NCBI RefSeq assembly: GCF_900100665.1
Contig: NZ_FNCS01000002.1
Coordinates: forward strand, 1-64,000
DNA length: 64,000 nt
Reading direction: 5' to 3'
From: Pelagibacterium luteolum
Lineage (GTDB): Bacteria > Pseudomonadota > Alphaproteobacteria > Rhizobiales > Devosiaceae
Under the pieces are notes generated by a model that was not told the origin of the DNA, did not search any database, and saw nothing but the letters and a program-made list of their open reading frames with translations. This document shows, one piece after another, positions 17,271-48,254 of this stretch. The first letter of the stretch is position 1, and every line of letters starts with the position of its first letter. The position numbers and the translations under genes were made by a program.

Positions 17271-18284
17271 ATGTCGGGTGCGGCAAAAAACGGCGACAAA
17301 ACACCCAACGCGCGCGCAGTCGGCGTGCCTGCCGTCAAGATCATCGACAAGGGGCAGTTGCTGGCCATTCGCGGCGCCCTCACCCTGCCTGCCGGCGGGG
17401 AGCCCATTTCCATCCCCAGTTTCGGGCCGAGCGACGGCTATTACGTTTCGGTGCAGTTGCGCCCGCTCAGGCGCGCCGAAGTCTGGCGCAATGGCCGACA
17501 TGTCGCGACGGTCAACGCGCCGAGCGCCGGAGTGCATATTTTCGACATGCGGGAGCGCTGGCGGGCGCTGATCTACAGCTCATTCCAGTCGGTGACGTTT
17601 TCGCTGCCGCGGACCGTGTTTGCCGGCGAGGACGATGGCACGGCGCGAACGGCATTGCCCGAGATCGACATCGGTCTCATCGACCCCACCCTGCGCCATC
17701 TGGCGATGGCGCTTACGCCTGCCTTCGCGCGGCCCAGCGAGGTTTCCCAGCTCTTTGCCGAGCATGTGCTGGAGGCTGTGGGGCAACATTTGCGGCGCGC
17801 TTATGGCGAGATCAGCTTTTCCGAACTGCAGCCGACGGGAGGGCTGGCCCCGTGGCAGAAGCGCCGGGCCAGCGACATGATGCGGGCAGCGCTGGACGGC
17901 GAGATCAGCAACGCCGACCTGGCGCGCGAATGCGGCCTTTCCCCGGGGCATTTCGCCAAGGCGTTCCGGCAATCTTTCGGGCTACCGCCGCATCGCTGGC
18001 TGATGCGGGAACGGGTGCGGCGCGCCATGGACATCATGACCGGCACGGCGCTGCCGCTCGACGAGATTGCCCTGGCGTGCGGGTTTTTCGACCAAGCGCA
18101 TTTGACGCGCGTGTTTCGCGTCATGGTGGGACATACGCCAGCGGCGTGGCGGCGGGATCGGGGCCGTGGGGGTAGCGGGGACGCGAATGGGCGGGGCATT
18201 GTTGGAGAGGGTGGCGGGCTTGGCGTAGGCCCTCGGGTCAAGCCCGAGGGTGACGGTTTGGGGGTGGGCGGTGCGGCGGGTTAG
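17271..18284 (+). CDS. AraC family transcriptional regulator
   Basis: A 337-residue regulator with a C-terminal AraC HTH (SNADLARECGLSPGHFAKAF, then LPLDEIALACGFFDQAHLTR and GHTPAAWRR, ending near residue 300) and an N-terminal sensor half without a recognised ligand. AraC proteins normally stop soon after the PxxWR motif; here about 40 glycine-rich residues follow and end in GPRVKPEGDG, the translation of an intergenic palindromic repeat. The tail is probably not functional. The start is the ATG at 17271, 13 codons inside a longer frame. The target is unknown; the divergent hydrolase is a candidate. Confidence 0.82.
   Translation: MSGAAKNGDKTPNARAVGVPAVKIIDKGQLLAIRGALTLPAGGEPISIPSFGPSDGYYVSVQLRPLRRAEVWRNGRHVATVNAPSAGVHIFDMRERWRALIYSSFQSVTFSLPRTVFAGEDDGTARTALPEIDIGLIDPTLRHLAMALTPAFARPSEVSQLFAEHVLEAVGQHLRRAYGEISFSELQPTGGLAPWQKRRASDMMRAALDGEISNADLARECGLSPGHFAKAFRQSFGLPPHRWLMRERVRRAMDIMTGTALPLDEIALACGFFDQAHLTRVFRVMVGHTPAAWRRDRGRGGSGDANGRGIVGEGGGLGVGPRVKPEGDGLGVGGAAG
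18230..18256 (+). repeat. Palindromic repeat, family A (inside the AraC gene 3' end)
   Basis: CCCTCGGG-tcaag-CCCGAGGG followed by TGACGG. The core matches the other family A copies. It lies within the coding frame and supplies the residues PRVKPEGD. Confidence 0.8.
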
Positions 18285-23786: not shown

Positions 23787-24214
23787 TGGTGGGGCTTTAT
23801 CGAGACTCAGCGCCCCCTCATCCGACCCTTCGGGCCACCTTATCCCACCAGGGGACAAGGAAGACTTCGGCAGCCCTGGTGAAAGAGCTGCACCGCCGAC
23901 CAAGCGCTTTCCTTCGGTGGAGAGTCGGCGTGGTCGATAGAACCACCAATGCGGAGGATACTGGGTCCCGGGTCAAGCCCGGGATGACGGTGAGGGTCGT
24001 GGCGGGCTCGGGTGCGGCAGAGCATTATGGGGTACGGGCTCTGGGGCTGATCATAGGATAGCGATAGAGGAAGGCCCCCCACCCGCCGCTTGGCGGCGAC
24101 CCGGATCACGTCCGGGGCAGGCTCTCTTCCCGGAGGGAGAGGTTAAAAGCGAAGGCTAAGTTTACTGGACTTTAAAACGCTTGGCGTGGGCCGGGCAAAG
24201 GAATGGAAGAGAGT
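23787..24214. repeat. Gap between iolD and iolE holding repeats of both families
   Basis: This 428-base gap has no credible gene. It contains a degenerate family B element at 23812-23860 (CCTTATCCCACCAGGGGACAAGG), a family A copy at 23953-23990 (ATACTGGGTCCCGGGTCAAG then CCCGGGATGACGG) and a second family B element at about 24076-24143 ending CCGGAGGGAGAGG. The remainder is anonymous. Confidence 0.75.
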
Positions 24215-33808: not shown

Positions 33809-34846
33809 ATGGAAGTCAAAGTCAAAAACGTCCGCAAGGAATTCGACAAGTTCCCGGCACTCAAAGACGTGTCGCTCAACATCAAGTCGGGCGAACTGAT
33901 CGCCTTGCTCGGGCCGTCCGGCTCCGGCAAGACCACCCTGCTCCGCCTGATTGCCGGGCTGGATTTCCCCAATGTCGGGGCGATCTATTTCGGCGACCAG
34001 GACGCATCGCAGAAAAGCGTGCGTGAACGCAATGTGGGGTTCGTGTTCCAGCATTATGCGCTGTTTCGGCATATGCGGGTGCTCGATAATGTCGGTTTCG
34101 GGCTCAAGGTGCGCAAGAAGGGCGATCGGCCATCCAAGGCCGAGATCGAACGCAGGGCAATGGAGCTGCTGGACTTCGTGCAGCTCAAGGGGCTTGAAAA
34201 GCGCTATCCCAATCAACTTTCGGGGGGGCAAAGGCAGCGCGTCGCACTGGCGCGGGCGTTAGCCATCGAGCCCAAGGTGCTGTTGCTGGACGAACCTTTC
34301 GGGGCGCTGGATGCGCAGGTGCGCAAGGAGTTGCGGCGCTGGTTGCGCGATATTCACGACAAGACCGGGCACACGACGGTGTTCGTGACCCATGACCAGG
34401 AAGAAGCGCTGGAGCTTGCCGACCGGGTGGTGGTGATGAGCCAGGGGCGCATCGAACAGGTCGGGACGCCCGACGAGATCTACGACACGCCCAACTCGCC
34501 GGCGGTGTTCTCGTTTATCGGAGAATCCTCAAAGCTGCCGGTGTCGATCGAAAATGGTCAGCTTTATCTCGCCGATCGGCCGCTGGGGCTCGATGCCAAG
34601 GGTGTTCCGGATGGCGAGGGGCAATTGTTTTTCCGCCCGCATGACGTGGAAGTGGTGGAGACCGGAGAGACGGCGATCGTAGGGACTGTTGTTGTCAGCC
34701 GCCGTACGGCGGGGACGCGGCAGGTGGAGCTTGAAGTCGGTGGCGCCAAGGAGCGCGTGGAGATCGAAATCCCGGTGGATCATCCAGCGACGAGCCGCAG
34801 CCGGATCGCGTTTCGGCCGAAAAAGTGGAGTGTGTTTGCGGGGTAG
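33809..34846 (+). CDS. cysA: Sulfate/thiosulfate ABC transporter ATPase CysA
   Basis: A 345-residue ATPase: Walker A GPSGSGKTT, signature LSGGQRQRVALARA, Walker B LLLDEPFGALD, H-loop FVTHDQEEA, then a C-terminal TOBE-like domain from about residue 240 (FIGESSKLPV, LFFRPHDVEV) as in CysA. The start MEVKVKNV has GGGGAG ahead; a longer frame overlaps cysW. It ends the operon; a family A repeat follows 51 bases later. Confidence 0.95.
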   Translation: MEVKVKNVRKEFDKFPALKDVSLNIKSGELIALLGPSGSGKTTLLRLIAGLDFPNVGAIYFGDQDASQKSVRERNVGFVFQHYALFRHMRVLDNVGFGLKVRKKGDRPSKAEIERRAMELLDFVQLKGLEKRYPNQLSGGQRQRVALARALAIEPKVLLLDEPFGALDAQVRKELRRWLRDIHDKTGHTTVFVTHDQEEALELADRVVVMSQGRIEQVGTPDEIYDTPNSPAVFSFIGESSKLPVSIENGQLYLADRPLGLDAKGVPDGEGQLFFRPHDVEVVETGETAIVGTVVVSRRTAGTRQVELEVGGAKERVEIEIPVDHPATSRSRIAFRPKKWSVFAG

Positions 34847-34896
34847 CGACCGATTGCGACTAGGAGAAACCTTTCATGCGCCGGACGGCGCATGGC

Positions 34897-35102
34897 TGGT
34901 CCTCGGGTGAAGCCCGGGGATGACGGTGGGGGTTTGGTTGGAGCTGGGGGGCTATCGGCGCTGCAAACACGCTCGAGATATGAGCGACTGCGCACTTGGT
35001 GAAGGCCCCCTCACCCGGCCTGCGGCCGACCTCTCCCCCTAGGGAGAGGTTGTTTTATGGCGGACGCAGCGGCAGCCTTGACCTCTCCCGCTAGGGAGAG
35101 GT
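34897..35102. repeat. Family A and family B repeats after cysA
   Basis: A family A copy (CCTCGGGtgaAGCCCGGGG then ATGACGG) lies at 34897-34926. Two family B elements follow: one at 35006-35050 (ACCTCTCCCcctaGGGAGAGGT at its end) and a perfect palindrome ACCTCTCCCgctaGGGAGAGGT at 35081-35102. They fill the space between the convergent cysA and ATP-grasp genes and could act as terminators. Confidence 0.8.
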
Positions 35103-35130
35103 GGTGACCGGGGAGAGGTTGTGCCCTCCT

Positions 35131-36174
35131 CTAAAGCGTTGCCAGTTCTCGGTTGTCGAGCTGTGCACCGTAGCCTTCGCGGATGGTCATTTTGGATTCC
35201 AGGGCTGCGATGACGGTGTCGCAGAAATTGGTGCCCATCAGCTCGGAGACGTTGTTGAGGCCGCCGGGGGTGAAGGTGTTGATCTCCAAGATCTTGTCGC
35301 CAACGATGTCGAGGCCGACAAGGAACATGCCGTCGTGGATCAATTTGGGACGGACGGCTTCGGCGACGGCCAGAATTCTGTCGCTGATCTCGACGGGCGC
35401 GACCGTGCCGCCACGGTGGACGTTGGAGCGGGTTTCGCCTTCGGCGGGGACGCGGCGGAAGGCGGCATATTTGCCATCGCGGACCAGCGGTTTACCGTTC
35501 ATCATGAAAAAGCGAACATCGCCTTCGGACGCCTCGGGCATGAAGCTCTGGGCGATGAGGTAGCCTTCTTCGCTGACGGCCTCGAAAATCTGGTTGAGGT
35601 TGGCGTCTTTCGGCGAAGCGATCTTGAAGACATTCTTGCCGCCCGAACCCTGCAGGGGCTTGATGATGACGCCCTTGCGCTGGCCGTCGATGAAATTGCG
35701 GATTTCCTCGATGCTCTTGGTGATCATCGTGTCGGGGCGGACGGACTGGGGAAAGTCCTGGAAATAGAGCTTGTTCTGGGCCTTGGCGAGACCATCGGGG
35801 TCGTTGACGACGAGCACGCCGCGCGCTGCGGCGAGGCGACCGAACAGGGCGCCGACATGGGCTGCCCATGGGTGTTCGGCGGCATCGAGCGAGGGGTCGT
35901 TGCGCAGGAACAGAACGTCGATTTCGCTGGCGTCGAAACGCTTTACTTCGCCTTTTTCCTGCAGATCCTTAAAGAGCGTGCTGGACTTCTTGTATTTGGC
36001 GGACGGCAGGGTCAGGGCGCGCACGGCGAGGCTGTCGTCGGGGCAGAGGACGAAATCGCCCGGCGTCACATAGCAGACCTCATGGCCGCGCTGGATGGCG
36101 GCGAGAGCGAGAACTGTCGTCGTATAATTGGGGGATTCGCCCTTGATGGAATTGACGAAGAAAGCGATGCGCAT
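35131..36174 (-). CDS. Glutathione-synthetase-like ATP-grasp ligase
   Basis: A 347-residue ATP-grasp protein related to GshB/RimK. An N-terminal GshB-like domain (MRIAFFVNSIKGESPNYTT) precedes the ATP-grasp fold: VIIKPLQGSGGKNVFKI (nucleotide loop), EASEGDVRFFMMNGKPLVR, and the metal-binding end GLDIVGDKILEINTFTPGGLNN. True GshB is about 315 residues and its gene is usually not in this setting. Together with the DUF1704 gene 8 bases upstream, it forms a conserved trio whose role is unknown; an amide ligase acting on a peptide or amino acid is inferred. GGAG precedes the ATG. Confidence 0.8.
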   Translation of the reverse strand: MRIAFFVNSIKGESPNYTTTVLALAAIQRGHEVCYVTPGDFVLCPDDSLAVRALTLPSAKYKKSSTLFKDLQEKGEVKRFDASEIDVLFLRNDPSLDAAEHPWAAHVGALFGRLAAARGVLVVNDPDGLAKAQNKLYFQDFPQSVRPDTMITKSIEEIRNFIDGQRKGVIIKPLQGSGGKNVFKIASPKDANLNQIFEAVSEEGYLIAQSFMPEASEGDVRFFMMNGKPLVRDGKYAAFRRVPAEGETRSNVHRGGTVAPVEISDRILAVAEAVRPKLIHDGMFLVGLDIVGDKILEINTFTPGGLNNVSELMGTNFCDTVIAALESKMTIREGYGAQLDNRELATL

Positions 36175-36182
36175 GGGTGCTC

Positions 36183-38048
36183 CTATGCGTTGATCATGTC
36201 GAGGGGAGAGAGGCCGGCACGGGCTTTTTCGAGACGCTCCGACGCTCCCTTTTGCGTGAGGAACCGCGGCAGGATGCGGGGGGATTTGAGGAGGCCGCGA
36301 CCGCCCAGCTCCTGCATGACGGGGAAATGGGATGCGGCGACCTTGCCCATCCAGAAGGGGTCGAGGCTGCCGCCGCCTTCCAAATGGGCGAGAATTTCCA
36401 AGAGACCGCGCAGATAAACGGCATCCTTGGCCAGCCCGCCACCACGATAGACGCGCAAAGTGAGGGTGAAGGCCGTGCTTTGGGAAAAGCCGTAATCGCG
36501 GGTCATGGCGTTAAACGTGGTCTGGAACGGCGCGCCGTCGAGCATCATGGAACAGGCAATGACGCGGGCCGCGATCAGGCGCAGGCGCGCGGGAGTCATG
36601 CCGCCGACGAGATATTCGGCGAGGACGGCGAGGCCCTCCTGCAGCCCCTCATAGCCGGCAAGGCCGGAGCGGAAGAGGCGCAGGCCCTGGGCGGAACCGT
36701 TGAAATAGGTAAGCAGATGGACGCCGACTTCGTGGCTCAACAAAGCCTCGACGCGGCCCTTGGGCATCGACATGCCGTTGGAGATCAGGAGGCGCCGTCC
36801 CGTGACCATCATGCCCGAGGGGAGATCATCGCGGAGTTCGATGGCTGCGTTGAAGGTCGGATCATCGCCGGCATAAGCGGCGATCATGGCGTCGGCCCGC
36901 TTCTTGACGAGCGCGGTGCCGACCTGTGTGGTGTCGGTGGCGCTGCCGGGGCCGCATTTATCGAGGATGGATTTGGCCGCTTTGAGCAGAGAGGGCTCGA
37001 TCGAGCCGTACAACGCGCGACCGAATTCGCGAAAACGCGGGGTTTCGCGCGAGGCTATCATCGAGAGTTGTAGATCGAGTTCCTGGCGCTTTTCTTCGTA
37101 GAGGCGCGAGAGGACGGGATCTTCGAACCTGTCGAGATCGATCGAGTACAGCGCGCGCTTCTGGCGGTCCACGCTGGCGGTGAGCGGGCGATAGAGAAAG
37201 CGCGGGGTGCGCTTGCAGCCGCTTTCCACGAACTGCTCGTGCGCGGGGCGCGCATTGATCGGGGTGACCGAGAGCAGGAAATCGAAGGACTGTGCGACCT
37301 CGTCGATGGCGCGGTCGGCGCGGGTGACCGTGTCGATGAAGACCTGGCGGCCGAGTGCGCGATGGGTCGCGGGCTTCATGGCCCCGGTCTTGCGGGCAAA
37401 GGCGGCGCTGGCCTGGAGCAGCGAATCCACCATGTTCTCGATGACGCGTTCGCGCAGGTCGGGATAAACTGTGTCTGCATCCGGCGCGCGGTAGATGGGC
37501 GCGAAGGCGACGTGCAAGGCCGGCAAATCGGTGAGGCGAGCGACCAGCGGGGCGGACTTTCCCGTGGCGAGGGCGGATTTGGAGACCTGGGGCAGACGGA
37601 ATTTGACGTCTGTCGACTGGATGGCTGTGGCCATCGCGGCAAGAGCCGACTGGGTGGCGTCGTCTTCGGAGGCCGCCAATTCGATCTCGAATGGCGGGAG
37701 GTGGGCGGCGTCTTCTGCGAGGTGGTCTTTTTCGAGTTCGCCGATTTCGATGACCAGGAAAGCGCCAAATTTTTCGGTCATGGCGGCGCTGACCTGCGCA
37801 ATGATGGCGCGGGCTTCTGACTGGTTGCGGAACAGGAGATAGGACGCATTGGCCGAGGCAACGGCGCGAGCAGCCTCGCGGACGCGATCGAGGCGGTGGA
37901 TGACGAGGAAGGGCAGCGCCCGGTCGATGTGCAGGCGCGCACCGCGCCCGAGGTCGCAGCGCAGGGCCTCGCCGTTTTCAAGCGCAGCGGCGATGGTTTC
38001 GGCGAGGGGCCGGTTCTTTTGAGGCGTCGGCTTGCGTTTTGCCGTCAT
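36183..38048 (-). CDS. DUF1704/QEGLA-motif zinc metalloprotease-like protein
   Basis: A 621-residue protein of the DUF1704 family, named in databases for its QEGLA motif and labelled 'flavohemoglobin expression-modulating' on little evidence. Metal ligands can be read: HEVGVH with His439, Glu440 and His444, and the QEGLA glutamate Glu471, 27 residues later, giving an HExxxH...E zinc site. The eukaryotic relatives KIAA0895L/MATCAP are carboxypeptidases that remove the C-terminal tyrosine of tubulin. The bacterial substrate is unknown. There is no signal peptide, so it is probably cytoplasmic. Start MTAKRKP; it overlaps the upstream amidohydrolase gene by 4 bases. Confidence 0.85.
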   Translation of the reverse strand: MTAKRKPTPQKNRPLAETIAAALENGEALRCDLGRGARLHIDRALPFLVIHRLDRVREAARAVASANASYLLFRNQSEARAIIAQVSAAMTEKFGAFLVIEIGELEKDHLAEDAAHLPPFEIELAASEDDATQSALAAMATAIQSTDVKFRLPQVSKSALATGKSAPLVARLTDLPALHVAFAPIYRAPDADTVYPDLRERVIENMVDSLLQASAAFARKTGAMKPATHRALGRQVFIDTVTRADRAIDEVAQSFDFLLSVTPINARPAHEQFVESGCKRTPRFLYRPLTASVDRQKRALYSIDLDRFEDPVLSRLYEEKRQELDLQLSMIASRETPRFREFGRALYGSIEPSLLKAAKSILDKCGPGSATDTTQVGTALVKKRADAMIAAYAGDDPTFNAAIELRDDLPSGMMVTGRRLLISNGMSMPKGRVEALLSHEVGVHLLTYFNGSAQGLRLFRSGLAGYEGLQEGLAVLAEYLVGGMTPARLRLIAARVIACSMMLDGAPFQTTFNAMTRDYGFSQSTAFTLTLRVYRGGGLAKDAVYLRGLLEILAHLEGGGSLDPFWMGKVAASHFPVMQELGGRGLLKSPRILPRFLTQKGASERLEKARAGLSPLDMINA

Positions 38049-38908
38049 GTCACCGCCTTGAGTTTTTCGCTCAGCACGGGAAGCGTGGCGGTGATGGCGG
38101 CGCGAAACTGATCGAGATGGCTGAGCGAGGGTTCGCCGGTCCATTCGTCCATGAAGACCTTCTTGAATTCGATGGCGATGGCGCAGCCGGTTTTGGGGAA
38201 GCGCTCGTGGACGAAGCGGGTCTGCTCTCCCCTGCCCTCGAAAGCGACGTTTTCGCGCACGTCGATGGGAGCGCCATCGACGGATTGCGCGGCAAGGGCT
38301 TCGAGGAAGGGATCGAGTAGCGGGGCCCAGCGGTCACGATCCATCGAGAAGGTGCCGATGTTGATGACCGGCGCCTTTTCGGGATCGGTCGGTGTGGCGT
38401 CGGCGCCGTCGCGGCGGTGATTGTAGGAGTGGATGTCGAGAAGGATAAAGCCGCCATGCATGGCCTCGAGACCCGCCAGGGTCTGTTCGAGCATGGCGTA
38501 ATAGGCGTCGTGAATGGCGAGGGACGCGTCGACCTGTGCTTGCGGGAGCGTGTCGTGCCAGACGTTAAGGCCCCAAGCCTGGTCGGGGCGCAGATAGACG
38601 GCGGCGTCGCGGGCGCGGTTGAGGTCGATTTCGAAGCGCGAGCGGTGGAAGATGACGCGGTTGGGGAGGTCCCGGATGAAATATTCGGTGAAGGGGTCTT
38701 CTTCGCGCAGGCGGCCATCTTCGGGGAGCGCGTAGTGGGGCGTGAGGTCCGGGCGGGTGTGGTGGCCGTTGTGGATGGCGGTGCCGATGATGGGCGAAGC
38801 GCTACGCTCGACGGTCCAGAGGGGATCGGCGGTCGTGACAACATGTCCGGTGCGCGCGGCAAACTGCTGGTGCGTGGTCAAAGGTCCGGTCTCAATGGCT
38901 TTAATCAA
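38045..38908 (-). CDS. N-formylglutamate-amidohydrolase-like protein
   Basis: A 287-residue FGase-family protein related to carboxypeptidase-type zinc hydrolases. Likely motifs are GTAIHNGHHTRPDL near residue 42, RFEIDLNRARDAAVY, and LLDIHSYNHRRDG, where the His residues are candidate metal ligands. HutG-type enzymes split N-formylglutamate to glutamate and formate, but no histidine-degradation gene is nearby, so this member probably acts on another N-acyl amino acid or peptide. It leads the three-gene unit. The start is uncertain: TTG at 38908 without a clear ribosome-binding site. Confidence 0.8.
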   Translation of the reverse strand: MIKAIETGPLTTHQQFAARTGHVVTTADPLWTVERSASPIIGTAIHNGHHTRPDLTPHYALPEDGRLREEDPFTEYFIRDLPNRVIFHRSRFEIDLNRARDAAVYLRPDQAWGLNVWHDTLPQAQVDASLAIHDAYYAMLEQTLAGLEAMHGGFILLDIHSYNHRRDGADATPTDPEKAPVINIGTFSMDRDRWAPLLDPFLEALAAQSVDGAPIDVRENVAFEGRGEQTRFVHERFPKTGCAIAIEFKKVFMDEWTGEPSLSHLDQFRAAITATLPVLSEKLKAVT

Positions 38909-39040
38909 AAATTCGGGCGTTTGGCCCGTGCGTGCCGATGAGAACGGATGAGGTCCGGGGTGGTTCCGGGGGATCGGTTTTGGGGGAGTTTCGGGTGGGG
39001 CTCAGCCGGGCGGGTGAGGGCTGGGTGGGCGCTCTGTGGG

Positions 39041-39135
39041 TTCTGGTTCGAGCCCGAGGATGACGGTTGGGATGGGCTGAGGGTCTCTTTCCATCGATCG
39101 CTTGCGCCCGCCTTCTCCCACGAGGGGAGAAGGCG
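39041..39135. repeat. Family A and family B repeats upstream of the amidohydrolase gene
   Basis: A degenerate family A copy (GGTTCGAGCCCGAGGATGAC) at 39041-39066 and a family B palindrome CGCCTTCTCCC-acga-GGGGAGAAGGCG at 39109-39135. They occupy the 251-base space between the glgX stop and the amidohydrolase start and may serve as the glgX terminator. Confidence 0.75.
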
Positions 39136-39159
39136 AACAGCGACAAATCAGTGCCAGAT

Positions 39160-41223
39160 TTAGTTTACGCGGGCGAAGGCCATGACGGTTTGCCAAGGGA
39201 CAGTAATGGCGCCAGAGGCGGAGTCTTCGCAGGCGACGTCGTCACGGGAGGTGTCGATGCGAAGGATCCAGTCGCCCTCGGGCAGGGTAAATTCGCAGTC
39301 ATCGCCTGCGTTGAGGATGATCAACACGTCGCCTCCCAGGGAGGCGCAAATGTTGAGGCCGAAGCAGCGGAGGTCGCCATCCTGCCAGGCGCCGTCGGAC
39401 ATGATTTCGCCCGAGGGGTGGAGCCATGCAGCGGTCGGCTGGACGTCGGGTTCGTCGGTTTCAGCCACGGTGAAGCGGGCCTTGGACAATTGCATCGACT
39501 TGCGGAACGCTGCGAGTGCGGCGACCGCGTCGACAAGTTCGGGGCGCGCCGCGGACCAGTCGAGCCAGGAGATCTCATTGTCCTGGCAGTAAGCGTTGTT
39601 ATTGCCATTCTGGGTGTTGCCGAATTCGTCGCCAGCCAAGATCATCGGGACGCCCTGGCTCAGAAGGACCGTGCCGAGCATGGCGCGGGCGCGGCGGATG
39701 CGGGCGGCGATGATGTCCTGGTTTCCGGTCTCGCCTTCCTCGCCCATATTGTCCGAGATGTTGTGGTCGTGACCGTCATTGTTGTCTTCGCCATTCGCCT
39801 CGTTGTGCTTCTGGGTGTAGCTGACGGTGTCCCACAATGTGTAGCCATCATGAGCAGCGACGAAGTTGACGCTGGATGTGGCTGGGCGATGGCTGTGATT
39901 AAACTGCACGGGTGAGCCGGCGAGGCGTTCGGACATGGCACCGATGAGGCCGGGATCCTTGCGCCAGAAGCCGCGCGTGTCGTCGCGAAATTTGTCATTC
40001 CATTCGCGGAACGGCCAGCGGTAACCGCCAACCTGATAGCCGCCATCGCCGATGTCCCAGGGTTCGGCGATGAGTTTTACGCCGCCGAGGACCGGGTCCT
40101 GACGCAGGGCGTTGAAGAACGAGCCATCACGCTCGAAACCTTCGGATTCACGACCGAGGGTGGAGGCGAGATCGAAGCGGAAGCCGTCGACATGCATAGC
40201 CTGCACCCAGTAGCGCAGGCTGTCGAGCACCATGCGGAGGACCATGGGGTGCGCGACGTTCAATGTGTTGCCGGTGCCGGTGGTGTCGAAGCTGTGGCGC
40301 TTGTTGTCCGAGAGCAGATAGTAGCTGGCGTTGTCGATGCCGCGGAAAGACAGGGTCGGGCCGAGTTCGTTGCCTTCGCAGGTATGGTTGAAGACTACGT
40401 CGAGGATGACTTCGATGCCGGCAGCGTGGAATTTCCTGACGGCCTCCTTCACTTCGCGGATTTGGCCGGTGTGAAGGTATGGCGCGTGAGGGGCGAAGAA
40501 CGAAAGGGTGGAGTAGCCCCAATAGTTCGAGAGACCCTGATCGACGAGATAGCGGTCATTGGCAAAGGCGTGGACGGGCAAGAGCTCCACGGCGGAGACA
40601 CCGATGTGCTTGAGGTGTTCGATGAAGCCGTCTGTGGCGAGGCCCTTGAAGGTGCCGCGAAGCTCTTCGGGCACGTCGTCGCGCTGCATGGTGAGGCCGC
40701 GTACGTGGCCCTCATAGACGAATGTGTCCTGCCAGCGGGTGCGCAGGGCCTCGTCGGTGTCCCAATCGAAAGCCGGGTCGGCGACGACGCCCTTGGGCAT
40801 GAAGGGGGCGCTGTCGCGCTCGTCGAAACTCAAGTCGTCTTCGCCGATGGTGTAGCCGTGCAGCGCGTCGTCCCATTGGACGGCGCCTCGCAGTTCGCGG
40901 GCGTAGGGGTCGAGCAGGAGCTTATTGGGGTTGAAGCGGTGGCCCTCTTCGGGGGCGTAGGGGCCGTGGACGCGGTAGCCATAGACCTGGCCGGGCTTGA
41001 TGCCCGGGAGATAGCCGAACCAGATGCCGCCTTCCATGGCGGGGAGATCGAGCCGGTGGAGCTCGGTTTCACCGGTGGGATCGAACAGGCAAAGCTCGAC
41101 GCGTTCGGCGTGCTCGGAAAAGAGCGCGAAATTGGTGCCCTCGCCGTTATAGTCGGCGCCGAGAATATCGGCGCGCGCAGAATGCAGGTCAAAGACCGGC
41201 TTTTCGTCAAGGGTTTTAAGCAT
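39160..41223 (-). CDS. glgX: Glycogen debranching enzyme (isoamylase type)
   Basis: A 687-residue GH13_11 enzyme. A CBM48 domain occupies about residues 15-110 (GTNFALFSEHAERVELCLFD). The catalytic triad is visible: nucleophile Asp351 in VDGFRFDLAS, acid/base Glu387 in LIAEPWD and Asp459 in FVAAHDG. It hydrolyses alpha-1,6 branches. In an operon with treZ and treY it supplies linear maltodextrins, the role called TreX elsewhere. The start overlaps the GlgC-like gene stop by 8 bases. Confidence 0.93.
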   Translation of the reverse strand: MLKTLDEKPVFDLHSARADILGADYNGEGTNFALFSEHAERVELCLFDPTGETELHRLDLPAMEGGIWFGYLPGIKPGQVYGYRVHGPYAPEEGHRFNPNKLLLDPYARELRGAVQWDDALHGYTIGEDDLSFDERDSAPFMPKGVVADPAFDWDTDEALRTRWQDTFVYEGHVRGLTMQRDDVPEELRGTFKGLATDGFIEHLKHIGVSAVELLPVHAFANDRYLVDQGLSNYWGYSTLSFFAPHAPYLHTGQIREVKEAVRKFHAAGIEVILDVVFNHTCEGNELGPTLSFRGIDNASYYLLSDNKRHSFDTTGTGNTLNVAHPMVLRMVLDSLRYWVQAMHVDGFRFDLASTLGRESEGFERDGSFFNALRQDPVLGGVKLIAEPWDIGDGGYQVGGYRWPFREWNDKFRDDTRGFWRKDPGLIGAMSERLAGSPVQFNHSHRPATSSVNFVAAHDGYTLWDTVSYTQKHNEANGEDNNDGHDHNISDNMGEEGETGNQDIIAARIRRARAMLGTVLLSQGVPMILAGDEFGNTQNGNNNAYCQDNEISWLDWSAARPELVDAVAALAAFRKSMQLSKARFTVAETDEPDVQPTAAWLHPSGEIMSDGAWQDGDLRCFGLNICASLGGDVLIILNAGDDCEFTLPEGDWILRIDTSRDDVACEDSASGAITVPWQTVMAFARVN

Positions 41224-42400: not shown

Positions 42401-42477
42401 TTGAAAAGCCCGACGACATATGTCCGGCGCTTTTCAAACGCGGCTTTGACGCGCCGGTTCCGGTGCGCTGCGGTCAA
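42401..42477 (-). promoter_or_regulatory. Two tandem hairpins between treY and the glgC-like gene
   Basis: The 102-base gap holds two inverted repeats: TTGAAAAGC...GCGCTTTTCAA at 42401-42437 and TTTGACgCGCCGG-tt-CCGGtGCGctgcgGTCAAA at about 42444-42477. Together they cover most of the space ahead of the GTG start. No long U-tract follows, so processing or attenuation is more likely than simple termination. Confidence 0.5.
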
Positions 42478-46464: not shown

Positions 46465-46682
46465 TATGGGGAGCCCCTGCCCGCGCTGTTGATCGTCGAG
46501 ACGACCTAACGCCGGGCTTTAATTGGCGTTCCTGATGTTTATGACGAATTGTTTGCAGCTATGGGCTCGCGGCGGTGCCGGGGGCTGACATAGGACCCAT
46601 GCTCGATTATGCAGCTATGATGCCAGCTCTGGCCGAGCCGAGCCTCGCGGCCGGGTATGCGGCGCGCTGGCGGGAGGGTGTT

Positions 46683-47837: not shown

Positions 47838-48254
47838 AGGCTGGTGTGTGTGGCGGGTTCTGCTGGGTCCTCGGGTCAAGCCCGAGGATGACGGTTGGAG
47901 GTGGGTGGGCGCTGTGGGAAGCCCCTTTGCGCTGGCGGAACTCCTTCGTTGGTTAAGCCCCTCCGCTCACCGAAACCCACCGCTGTCATCACGTGCGGAG
48001 ACCTGGGATCCAGTATGTTCGGCGGGGCGGGAGGGCACGGGGACAATATCGGGCGCGGAGCATACTGGGTCCCGGCGCAAGGCCGGGATGACGGGTGCGG
48101 TGACCTGACGAATGGGCGATAGCCTCAAAGGTCGTCATCCTCGGGAGTGACCGGAGAGATGACGGTTGGTGGGGTGGTGGCGCGGTGTGGGTCGCACTGG
48201 CGGTGATCGATACCTAGCAAGAGCCAATGTGGCTCGTGCCGGGAGACGAAATGA
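47838..48254. repeat. Gap after lldD with four family A repeat copies
   Basis: No gene is seen in this gap of about 420 bases. It has a direct family A copy at 47861-47894, an inverted copy at 47983-48020 (ending GATCCAGTATGTTC), a direct copy at 48058-48094 and a degenerate copy at 48132-48164. The inverted and following direct copy form a composite like those at 18414 and 25318. Confidence 0.8.

What the first reader, a model, noticed from the sequence alone, without database searches (positions are those of the whole stretch)
35131..38908. Ligase-protease-amidohydrolase cassette of unknown function
Three overlapping or abutting genes encode an N-formylglutamate-amidohydrolase-like enzyme, a DUF1704 protein with a readable HExxxH...E zinc site (His439, Glu440, His444, Glu471) and a GshB/RimK-like ATP-grasp ligase. 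DUF1704's animal relative MATCAP removes a terminal amino acid from tubulin. A ligase, a carboxypeptidase-like protease and an N-acyl amino acid hydrolase together look like an add-and-remove system for amino acids on a peptide, protein or small metabolite. No histidine-degradation or glutathione genes are next to it.
Basis: partly seen in the sequence, partly recalled or inferred. Interest (0 to 1): 0.8.

Follow-up and report, generated by a model that had tools for sequence, protein, structure and literature searches.

The report
Stress-linked peptide ligase–hydrolase gene cassette
Three bacterial genes that stay together across many phyla encode one enzyme that should join amino acids and two zinc enzymes that should split them off again, and their settings point to stress and salt adaptation, but what they act on is still unknown.

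Summary
Window 38908-35131 (minus) carries an FGase-family hydrolase, a DUF1704 protein (Pfam MATCAP) and a GshB-like ATP-grasp ligase, coupled by a 4-nt overlap and an 8-nt gap. Some genomes fuse FGase to MATCAP; some planctomycetes have tandem ligases.

MATCAP's model is confident, its best solved match is human MATCAP, and HExxxH...E is kept in 81 of 81. The ligase is not this genome's canonical glutathione synthetase; the FGase is not HutG.

New: an EcfG stress-promoter motif precedes the operon in many Alphaproteobacteria; MscS channel genes lie nearby too often elsewhere; a published Photobacterium transcriptome shows neighbouring ligase and MATCAP genes up 38- and 28-fold at low salt. 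I propose a stress-controlled cycle adding and removing glutamate-type residues at a peptide or protein end. The module is well supported; substrate and direction are inferred. I found no description in the library searched.

The parts
38045..38908 (-). FGase-family (PF05013) zinc-hydrolase-like protein, first gene of the cassette; TTG start, exact start uncertain
   Evidence: PF05013 81.6 bits; HutG model 20.3 of 278.75 bits; AlphaFold2 pLDDT 91.6; Foldseek best hits FGases 2q7s and 2odf, then M14 carboxypeptidases; His46 69 of 70 and His160 70 of 70; metal role of these His inferred
36183..38048 (-). MATCAP/DUF1704/QEGLA gluzincin-type metallopeptidase-like protein, 621 aa; catalytic domain about residues 245-610, N-terminal domain about 1-240 possibly a degenerate FGase
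   Evidence: H439 E440 H444 E471 81 of 81; profile hit to human KIAA0895-like 7z5g E 1.6e-17; model pLDDT 94.4; Foldseek best 7z6s_C human MATCAP E 4.5e-8; N-domain against FGase hhalign P 6.5e-5, probability 64
35131..36174 (-). GshB-like ATP-grasp ligase, subfamily NF009110, 347 aa; preceded by AGGAG
   Evidence: conserved ATP-grasp positions in 77 sequences; distinct from the genome's canonical GshB
38943..38967 (-). EcfG-type promoter motif GGAAC-N16-CGTT, ending 34 nt before the FGase start
   Evidence: motif enriched near the FGase start in alphaproteobacterial relatives; NepR present in the genome
38914..38928 (-). short hairpin plus T run (terminator-like) between the motif and the FGase start; role unknown
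   Evidence: 5 such sites found in the region against 4.1 expected in shuffles, so possibly chance

Best explanation
The three genes are one stress-induced enzyme set that reversibly changes the ends of a glutamate-rich peptide (a small peptide or a protein tail). The GshB-like ATP-grasp ligase uses ATP to join an amino acid to a carboxylate. MATCAP, a zinc carboxypeptidase-like enzyme, takes the C-terminal residue off again. The FGase-fold zinc hydrolase cuts an N-acyl or terminal glutamyl amide, recycling the amino acid. In Alphaproteobacteria the operon is switched on by the general stress sigma factor EcfG; elsewhere it is tied to changes in external salt. Shown here: gene order, coupling, conserved motif residues, folds of FGase and MATCAP, promoter motif, neighbours. 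Inferred: that the three act on the same molecule, that the residue is glutamate-type, the direction of each reaction, the control by EcfG, and the osmotic role.
For: Both partners adjacent to MATCAP in 63 of 80 loci, ligase in 72, FGase in 65. Ligase subfamily NF009110 over cut-off in 8 of 299 and 9 of 149 genomes; MATCAP in 7 of those 8 and 9 of those 9 (pooled Fisher 1.3e-14; the two index genomes are included). FGase-MATCAP fusion in L032 and one open frame in Photobacterium L061. An AstE/AspA-type enzyme beside MATCAP where FGase is missing in L033 and L153. Motif residues conserved. MATCAP fold. EcfG motif strict in 7 of 29 and loose in 17 of 29 alpha loci against 0.32 and 1.15 expected; 0 of 39 non-alpha loci. 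MscS genes in 6 of 51 non-alpha loci against 0.53 expected. Photobacterium damselae: GshB and QEGLA genes with neighbouring tags up 38.4- and 27.5-fold at low salt (PMC10308900, passages). Animal MATCAP/TMCP enzymes remove C-terminal Tyr and Glu and polyglutamate (PMC10499314, passages).
Against: No substrate or target gene was found conserved. The glutamate inference rests on relatives and neighbours, not on residues that I could assign. 42 of 58 MATCAP genomes in the two samples lack this ligase subfamily. In five loci without FGase whose upstream gene I scanned, none was FGase-like: WbqC, two without a Pfam hit, DUF4253, Asn synthase. The Photobacterium ligase passes NCBI's cut-off for one glutathione synthase model (292 of 272 bits). 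The MscS enrichment was noticed first and tested afterwards. The rlo neighbours occur in one genus only. The EcfG loci are related, so expected counts are nominal, and window-wide the motif count is not striking (5 against 1.9, reached by 6 of 100 shuffles).
Confidence: 0.5

Rival explanations
1. A small-molecule pathway: the ligase builds a stress metabolite (an N-acylated di- or tripeptide, a compatible solute or thiol) and the two hydrolases degrade or mature it; no protein is modified.
For: The nearest solved relative of the ligase is a glutathione synthetase (1gsa, E 7e-35). FGase is an N-acyl amino acid hydrolase family (general knowledge). Tandem extra ligases (L104, L108, L122; G403 three in tandem) suit stepwise peptide building. 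TreY, TreZ and GlgX next door are solute genes.
Against: The characterised MATCAP enzymes act on protein tails. I found no exporter, amidotransferase or acyltransferase conserved with the cassette among the neighbours clustered or scanned; the Asn synthase beside L153 is ordinary AsnB.
Confidence: 0.35
2. A glutathione-related side system: the ligase is a second glutathione synthetase and the hydrolases salvage gamma-glutamyl or N-formyl peptides.
For: Annotated as glutathione synthetase; 43 of 78 positions conserved in the cassette ligases are shared with the genome's GshB; L061 passes one GshB model's cut-off.
Against: Window ligase 209.2 of 299.05 bits for TIGR01380 and 220.2 of 272 for NF003573; a canonical GshB (411.8 bits) lies elsewhere; 35 of 78 conserved positions differ, including the loop after Glu297-Ile-Asn.
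Confidence: 0.08
3. A regulatory protein set: MATCAP (named 'flavohemoglobin expression-modulating' by NCBI) acts on gene expression and the enzymes are partners of unrelated chemistry.
For: The NCBI family name.
Against: Zinc-motif residues identical in 81 of 81; no Pfam domain other than MATCAP in the protein at E 0.01; the name occurs in one paper of the library, as a gene label only.
Confidence: 0.05

Closest known systems
Eukaryotic tubulin-tail cycle: TTL/TTLL ATP-grasp ligases, CCP (M14) and MATCAP/TMCP carboxypeptidases
   Same: ATP-grasp ligase plus an M14-fold and a MATCAP-family hydrolase; MATCAP homology by sequence and fold; TMCPs remove Tyr and Glu (PMC10499314, passages)
   Different: No tubulin; ligase is GshB-type, not TTL-type (TTL class recalled, not tested); the M14-fold partner is FGase, not CCP; genes form one operon; substrate unknown
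RimK/RimB and RloABC (Pseudomonas)
   Same: ATP-grasp ligase paired with a peptidase; RloA cleaves poly-Glu and the system acts in hypoosmotic stress (PMC12239564); rlo-like genes follow the cassette ligase in L034 and L038, one genus
   Different: No PF05618 protease among the three window proteins; ligase scores 76.6 of 143.4 bits for the RimK family
Glutathione synthetase GshB
   Same: ATP-grasp family, shared ATP-site positions
   Different: Below two GshB cut-offs; separate canonical GshB in the genome
HutG N-formylglutamate deformylase
   Same: PF05013 family and fold
   Different: 20.3 of 278.75 bits for HutG; no hut genes among the neighbours scanned
NAGGN osmolyte system (asnO, ngg, peptidase; recalled)
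   Same: Stress-linked peptide ligase and peptidase genes
   Different: Neither AsnO nor Ngg among the three window proteins; L153's synthase is ordinary AsnB

Membership tests
MATCAP / TIGR02421 / PF08014 | profile score above curated cut-off | tested here: met
   373.5 of 338.65; 307.8 of 27
MATCAP / TIGR02421 / PF08014 | HExxxH plus downstream Glu metal motif | tested here: met
   H439 E440 H444 E471 in 81 of 81; aligned with human KIAA0895-like
MATCAP / TIGR02421 / PF08014 | MATCAP fold | tested here: met
   Foldseek rank 1 is 7z6s_C, E 4.5e-8, TM by target 0.68; second aligner unavailable
MATCAP / TIGR02421 / PF08014 | metal bound in the site | not testable with these tools
   model coordinates not readable
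MATCAP / TIGR02421 / PF08014 | carboxypeptidase activity on C-terminal Tyr or Glu | not testable with these tools
   needs purified protein
NF009110 (PRK12458 subfamily) | score above cut-off | tested here: met
   457.2 of 408
Glutathione synthase (TIGR01380, NF003573) | score above cut-off | tested here: not met
   209.2 of 299.05 and 220.2 of 272; the relative L061 does pass NF003573, 292 of 272
RimK family ligase (TIGR00768) | score above cut-off | tested here: not met
   76.6 of 143.4
HutG (TIGR02017) | score above cut-off | tested here: not met
   20.3 of 278.75
FGase family PF05013 | score above cut-off and fold | tested here: met
   81.6 of 28.9; 2q7s E 4.3e-11
EcfG general stress regulon | GGAAC-N16/17-CGTT promoter motif (consensus recalled) and NepR in the genome | tested here: met
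   window 38967-38943; NepR 52 of 25.7 bits
EcfG general stress regulon | EcfG-dependent transcription | not testable with these tools
   needs RNA-seq of an ecfG/rpoE2 mutant
RloABC / RimB systems | PF05618 retropepsin-like protease in the cassette | tested here: not met
   absent from the three window proteins; homologues of the L038 protein found beside the cassette only in L034, L036 (a short piece) and L038, one genus, among the loci given

The most novel reading that the evidence does not exclude
Bacteria carry an operon-encoded, stress-switched counterpart of the eukaryotic tubulin-tail code: an ATP-grasp ligase writes glutamate-type residues on a peptide or protein end, and a MATCAP and an M14-fold enzyme erase them, so that cells can buffer glutamate (and thus osmotic pressure) or tag a target when external salt falls. 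The MATCAP enzymes of animals would then descend from an ancient bacterial peptide-end eraser.
Probability: 0.15. Interest if true: 0.85.

Novelty: new variant of a known kind. Interest (0 to 1): 0.62.

Why it matters
MATCAP was described in animals as a tubulin-tail enzyme, while its bacterial family bears a name whose origin I could not find and its partners are annotated as glutathione synthetase and formylglutamate amidohydrolase. Showing that the three form one module across about eight phyla, with a stress promoter motif and an osmotic setting, gives those probably misnamed genes a testable joint function and a tractable model (Sinorhizobium meliloti pSymB), and bears on where animal MATCAP came from.

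Tried and rejected
Single-protein genome scan found no relative; the alignment-based repeat worked. Glutathione role: disfavoured by cut-offs and a separate GshB. HutG role: rejected. NAGGN link through L153's Asn synthase: rejected, it is ordinary AsnB. Sigma-70 promoter scan of 34700-39300: none found, 0.5 expected. Rfam in 34500-39500: none at gathering threshold. Phage carriage: no match in the phage collection.

Literature searches: DUF1704 with ATP-grasp, 0 papers; DUF1704, 1, on malaria by its title; QEGLA, 1; MATCAP with bacteria, 12 papers, 11 listed, one opened; N-formylglutamate amidohydrolase with ATP-grasp, 0; family accessions, 28 papers, 20 listed, mostly malaria papers that from titles and abstracts I took for chance matches of an accession string (one, PMC3091676, opened for passages); amidoligase terms, 33 papers, 20 listed, one opened; 'flavohemoglobin expression-modulating', 1; guessed S. 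meliloti locus tags, 3 papers (in the one I opened, PMC3687685, the tag lies elsewhere on pSymB, so the guess was wrong) and 0 papers. Iyer et al. 2009 on amidoligases (PMC3268129) is not held and may already mention part of this.

Corrections made on the way. I first counted three independent rlo cases; they are one genus, and L036 shows only short pieces. The MscS figure of 5 in 23 is biased, because I chose the 23 genomes knowing the five positives; 6 of 51 is fairer (a seventh, L146, at 27 bits, was left out). Two of the 17 misses (L077, L145) are artefacts of stop-to-stop frames: one search shows FGase directly before MATCAP there; I kept the lower count. In L137, counted as complete, FGase comes last.
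Full report
What is there. The order of transcription is FGase, MATCAP, ligase. The MATCAP start is taken as the ATG at 38048, which overlaps the FGase stop by 4 nt; the ligase starts 8 nt after the MATCAP stop behind an AGGAG. The same 4-nt overlap is annotated in 10 of the 11 annotated plasmid relatives fetched, and the second gap is 8-11 nt in the 9 of those 10 with a listed ligase; in the 11th, S. medicae L055, two group II intron reverse-transcriptase genes lie between FGase and MATCAP. This looks like a translationally coupled operon.

Is it a cassette? Yes. In 63 of these 80 both partners are adjacent to MATCAP on its strand; the ligase is adjacent in 72 and FGase in 65; 28 of 29 in Alphaproteobacteria and 35 of 51 elsewhere. 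FGase comes first in these except in L137, where it comes last. By record title the complete non-alpha cases fall in Gammaproteobacteria, Gemmatimonadota, Planctomycetota, Acidobacteriota, Kiritimatiellae, Bacteroidota, Calditrichaeota and Desulfobacterales, so about eight phyla in all. The 17 counted misses are L077, L109, L112, L118, L120, L123, L128, L130, L135, L144-L148, L150, L152 and L153. L077 and L145 are counting artefacts (one search shows FGase directly before MATCAP); L128, L130, L146 and L148 end at a contig edge on one side; L112 and L130 carry both partners on the other strand; L120 has the ligase farther off on the other strand.

A less biased test uses genomes drawn by the tool. 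In the window's phylum MATCAP is in 29 of 299 genomes and the ligase subfamily NF009110 is over its cut-off in 8 of 299; 7 of these 8 have MATCAP, and in the eighth (G109, 82% complete) the ligase starts 48 bases from a contig end. Of the 10 ligase genes over cut-off, 9 lie beside MATCAP. In the phylum of G349 (a planctomycete by its record title) the ligase is in 9 of 149 and MATCAP in 29 of 149; all 9 have MATCAP, and 17 of 19 ligase genes lie within 4 kb of one on the same contig. Each sample includes the genome that prompted it; without these the counts are 6 of 7 and 8 of 8. Fisher tests with them: 3e-7, 1.3e-7, pooled 1.3e-14. The ligase thus goes with MATCAP; the reverse is not true, since 42 of the 58 MATCAP genomes lack this ligase. 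In one search the scores leave a gap (456.7 bits and above, 240.9 and below). In one search there are intermediates: one of 303 bits (G426) lies beside a MATCAP, one of 285 (G379) is in a genome without MATCAP.

Fusions and variants. In L032 one 661-aa protein carries FGase and MATCAP, and in Photobacterium sp. DA100 one 662-aa open frame does, by tblastn and TIGR02421, with the ligase upstream in both. In planctomycetes L108 and L122 the order is FGase-MATCAP-ligase-ligase-MATCAP-ligase; L104 and G403 have two and three tandem ligases. In L033 (the same contig as L144, by length) an AstE/AspA-type enzyme stands beside MATCAP, and in L153 one follows the ligase; but the genes upstream of MATCAP in L118, L123, L150, L152 and L153 are not FGase-like. 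The N-terminal domain of MATCAP aligns to FGase by profile (P 6.5e-5, probability 64), without the D-x-H motif; the Foldseek hits to that kind of fold are weak. I read it as a probable degenerate FGase, not proven.

Are the enzymes intact? MATCAP H439, E440, H444 and E471 are kept in 81 of 81 sequences; FGase His46 in 69 of 70 and His160 in 70 of 70; the ligase keeps Lys135, Lys172, its glycine loop, Asp289, Glu297 and Asn299 in 74 to 77 of 77. AlphaFold2 gave mean pLDDT 91.6 for FGase and 94.4 for MATCAP. FGase matches solved FGases first, then M14 carboxypeptidases and, weakly, the poly-glutamate-bound hydrolase YndL (rank 13, E 3.8e-4). MATCAP matches human MATCAP first, and its profile finds human KIAA0895-like with the zinc motifs aligned. 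Model coordinates could not be read, so zinc geometry was not measured.

Not glutathione, not histidine. The genome has a canonical GshB elsewhere (411.8 bits, cut-off 299.05); the cassette ligase is below both GshB cut-offs and differs from that GshB at 35 of 78 positions conserved in the cassette family. Against this, the Photobacterium ligase passes one GshB cut-off. A second, higher-scoring FGase gene lies elsewhere in the genome (249.4 bits), and the cassette FGase fails the HutG cut-off.

Regulation and setting. An EcfG-type motif (consensus recalled) lies 34 nt before the FGase start. The whole window has 5 such sites against 1.9 in shuffles (6 of 100 shuffles reach 5), which is weak, but 3 of the 5 sit 34-43 nt before the first genes of minus-strand operons: FGase, the GlgC-like gene with GlgX, and TreZ with TreY. 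In a first look at 17 plasmid trios the strict motif was near FGase in 4, three of these Sinorhizobium at about 290-303 nt. In 29 alphaproteobacterial loci of the genome scan, from 300 nt before to 60 nt after the projected FGase start, the strict motif occurs in 7 and a looser form in 17, against 0.32 and 1.15 expected from the same loci; in 39 non-alpha loci 0 and 0 against 0.22 and 1.15. Several sites fall just after the projected start, so true starts may lie a little downstream. The loci are related, so this is strong but not independent. NepR is present in the genome. MscS-type channel genes lie in the flanks of 6 of 51 non-alpha loci (a seventh is weak) against 0.53 expected from 168 such genes in 130.3 Mb of 23 genomes; this was tested after it was noticed. 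In two genomes of one genus full rlo-like sets stand next to the cassette, with short pieces in a third (L034, L038, L036; probably Magnetococcales, inferred from the shared contig length with L144). RloA of Pseudomonas cleaves poly-glutamate and serves hypoosmotic survival (PMC12239564: outline with abstract, passages and one section). In Photobacterium damselae the neighbouring tags for GshB and the QEGLA protein rise 38.4- and 27.5-fold at 1% against 3% NaCl (PMC10308900, passages only); that this pair is the cassette is inferred from gene names, tags and the L061 relative. In Vibrio vulnificus a COG3930 gene and a glutathione synthetase have neighbouring tags (PMC3091676, passages).

Origin. 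None of 40 relatives, 12 of them congeners, has a MATCAP match, so the cassette was probably acquired here. TreY is patchy too: strong in 2 of 12 congeners. MATCAP relatives occur in 126 of 72,556 plasmid records, 79 of them Sinorhizobium.

Reading. The composition matches, type for type, the enzymes that write and erase tubulin tails in eukaryotes: an ATP-grasp ligase, an M14-fold hydrolase and a MATCAP. Animal MATCAP relatives remove polyglutamate (PMC10499314, passages). Together with the stress and osmotic setting I commit to a reversible, glutamate-type peptide-end cycle. What is shown is the module, its conserved motif residues and its setting; the substrate and the directions are inference. 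I found no paper in the library searched that describes the trio, but the key review of amidoligases was not held.

Noticed in passing
window 42437-42461 (-) and 46508-46532 (-): EcfG-type motifs 39 and 43 nt before the GlgC-like/GlgX pair and the TreZ/TreY pair, suggesting a stress island of three operons.
   Followed up: partly
window 35030-35049 and 35082-35101: Two near-identical palindromes CCTCTCCC..GGGAGAGG downstream of the cassette and a weaker copy at 24123-24142; 6 matches (both strands of 3 places), 0 of 100 shuffles reach that.
   Followed up: partly
window 34911-34931, 39051-39071, 47879-47899, 18241-18261: A 21-nt repeat that brackets the cassette and recurs twice elsewhere in the window with 1-2 mismatches; possibly an intergenic repeat family.
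   Followed up: partly
L055 4047-7205 (Sinorhizobium medicae ml29): Two group II intron reverse-transcriptase genes lie between FGase and MATCAP.
   Followed up: no
L108, L122, L104 and G403 contig 57: Tandem duplicated ligases, and in L108 and L122 a second MATCAP, which may allow stepwise addition of different residues.
   Followed up: partly
L109 8917-9882: A glutaminyl cyclase-family gene whose frame begins at the end of the ligase, in a locus without a detected FGase.
   Followed up: no
L035, L036, L038, L105, L107, L114: CorA-type Mg transporter homologues near the cassette, three of the six at only 51-78 bits.
   Followed up: no
family TIGR02421 and NF009110: The NCBI name 'flavohemoglobin expression-modulating' has no source in the papers searched; it and 'glutathione synthetase' for NF009110 look misleading.
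   Followed up: partly
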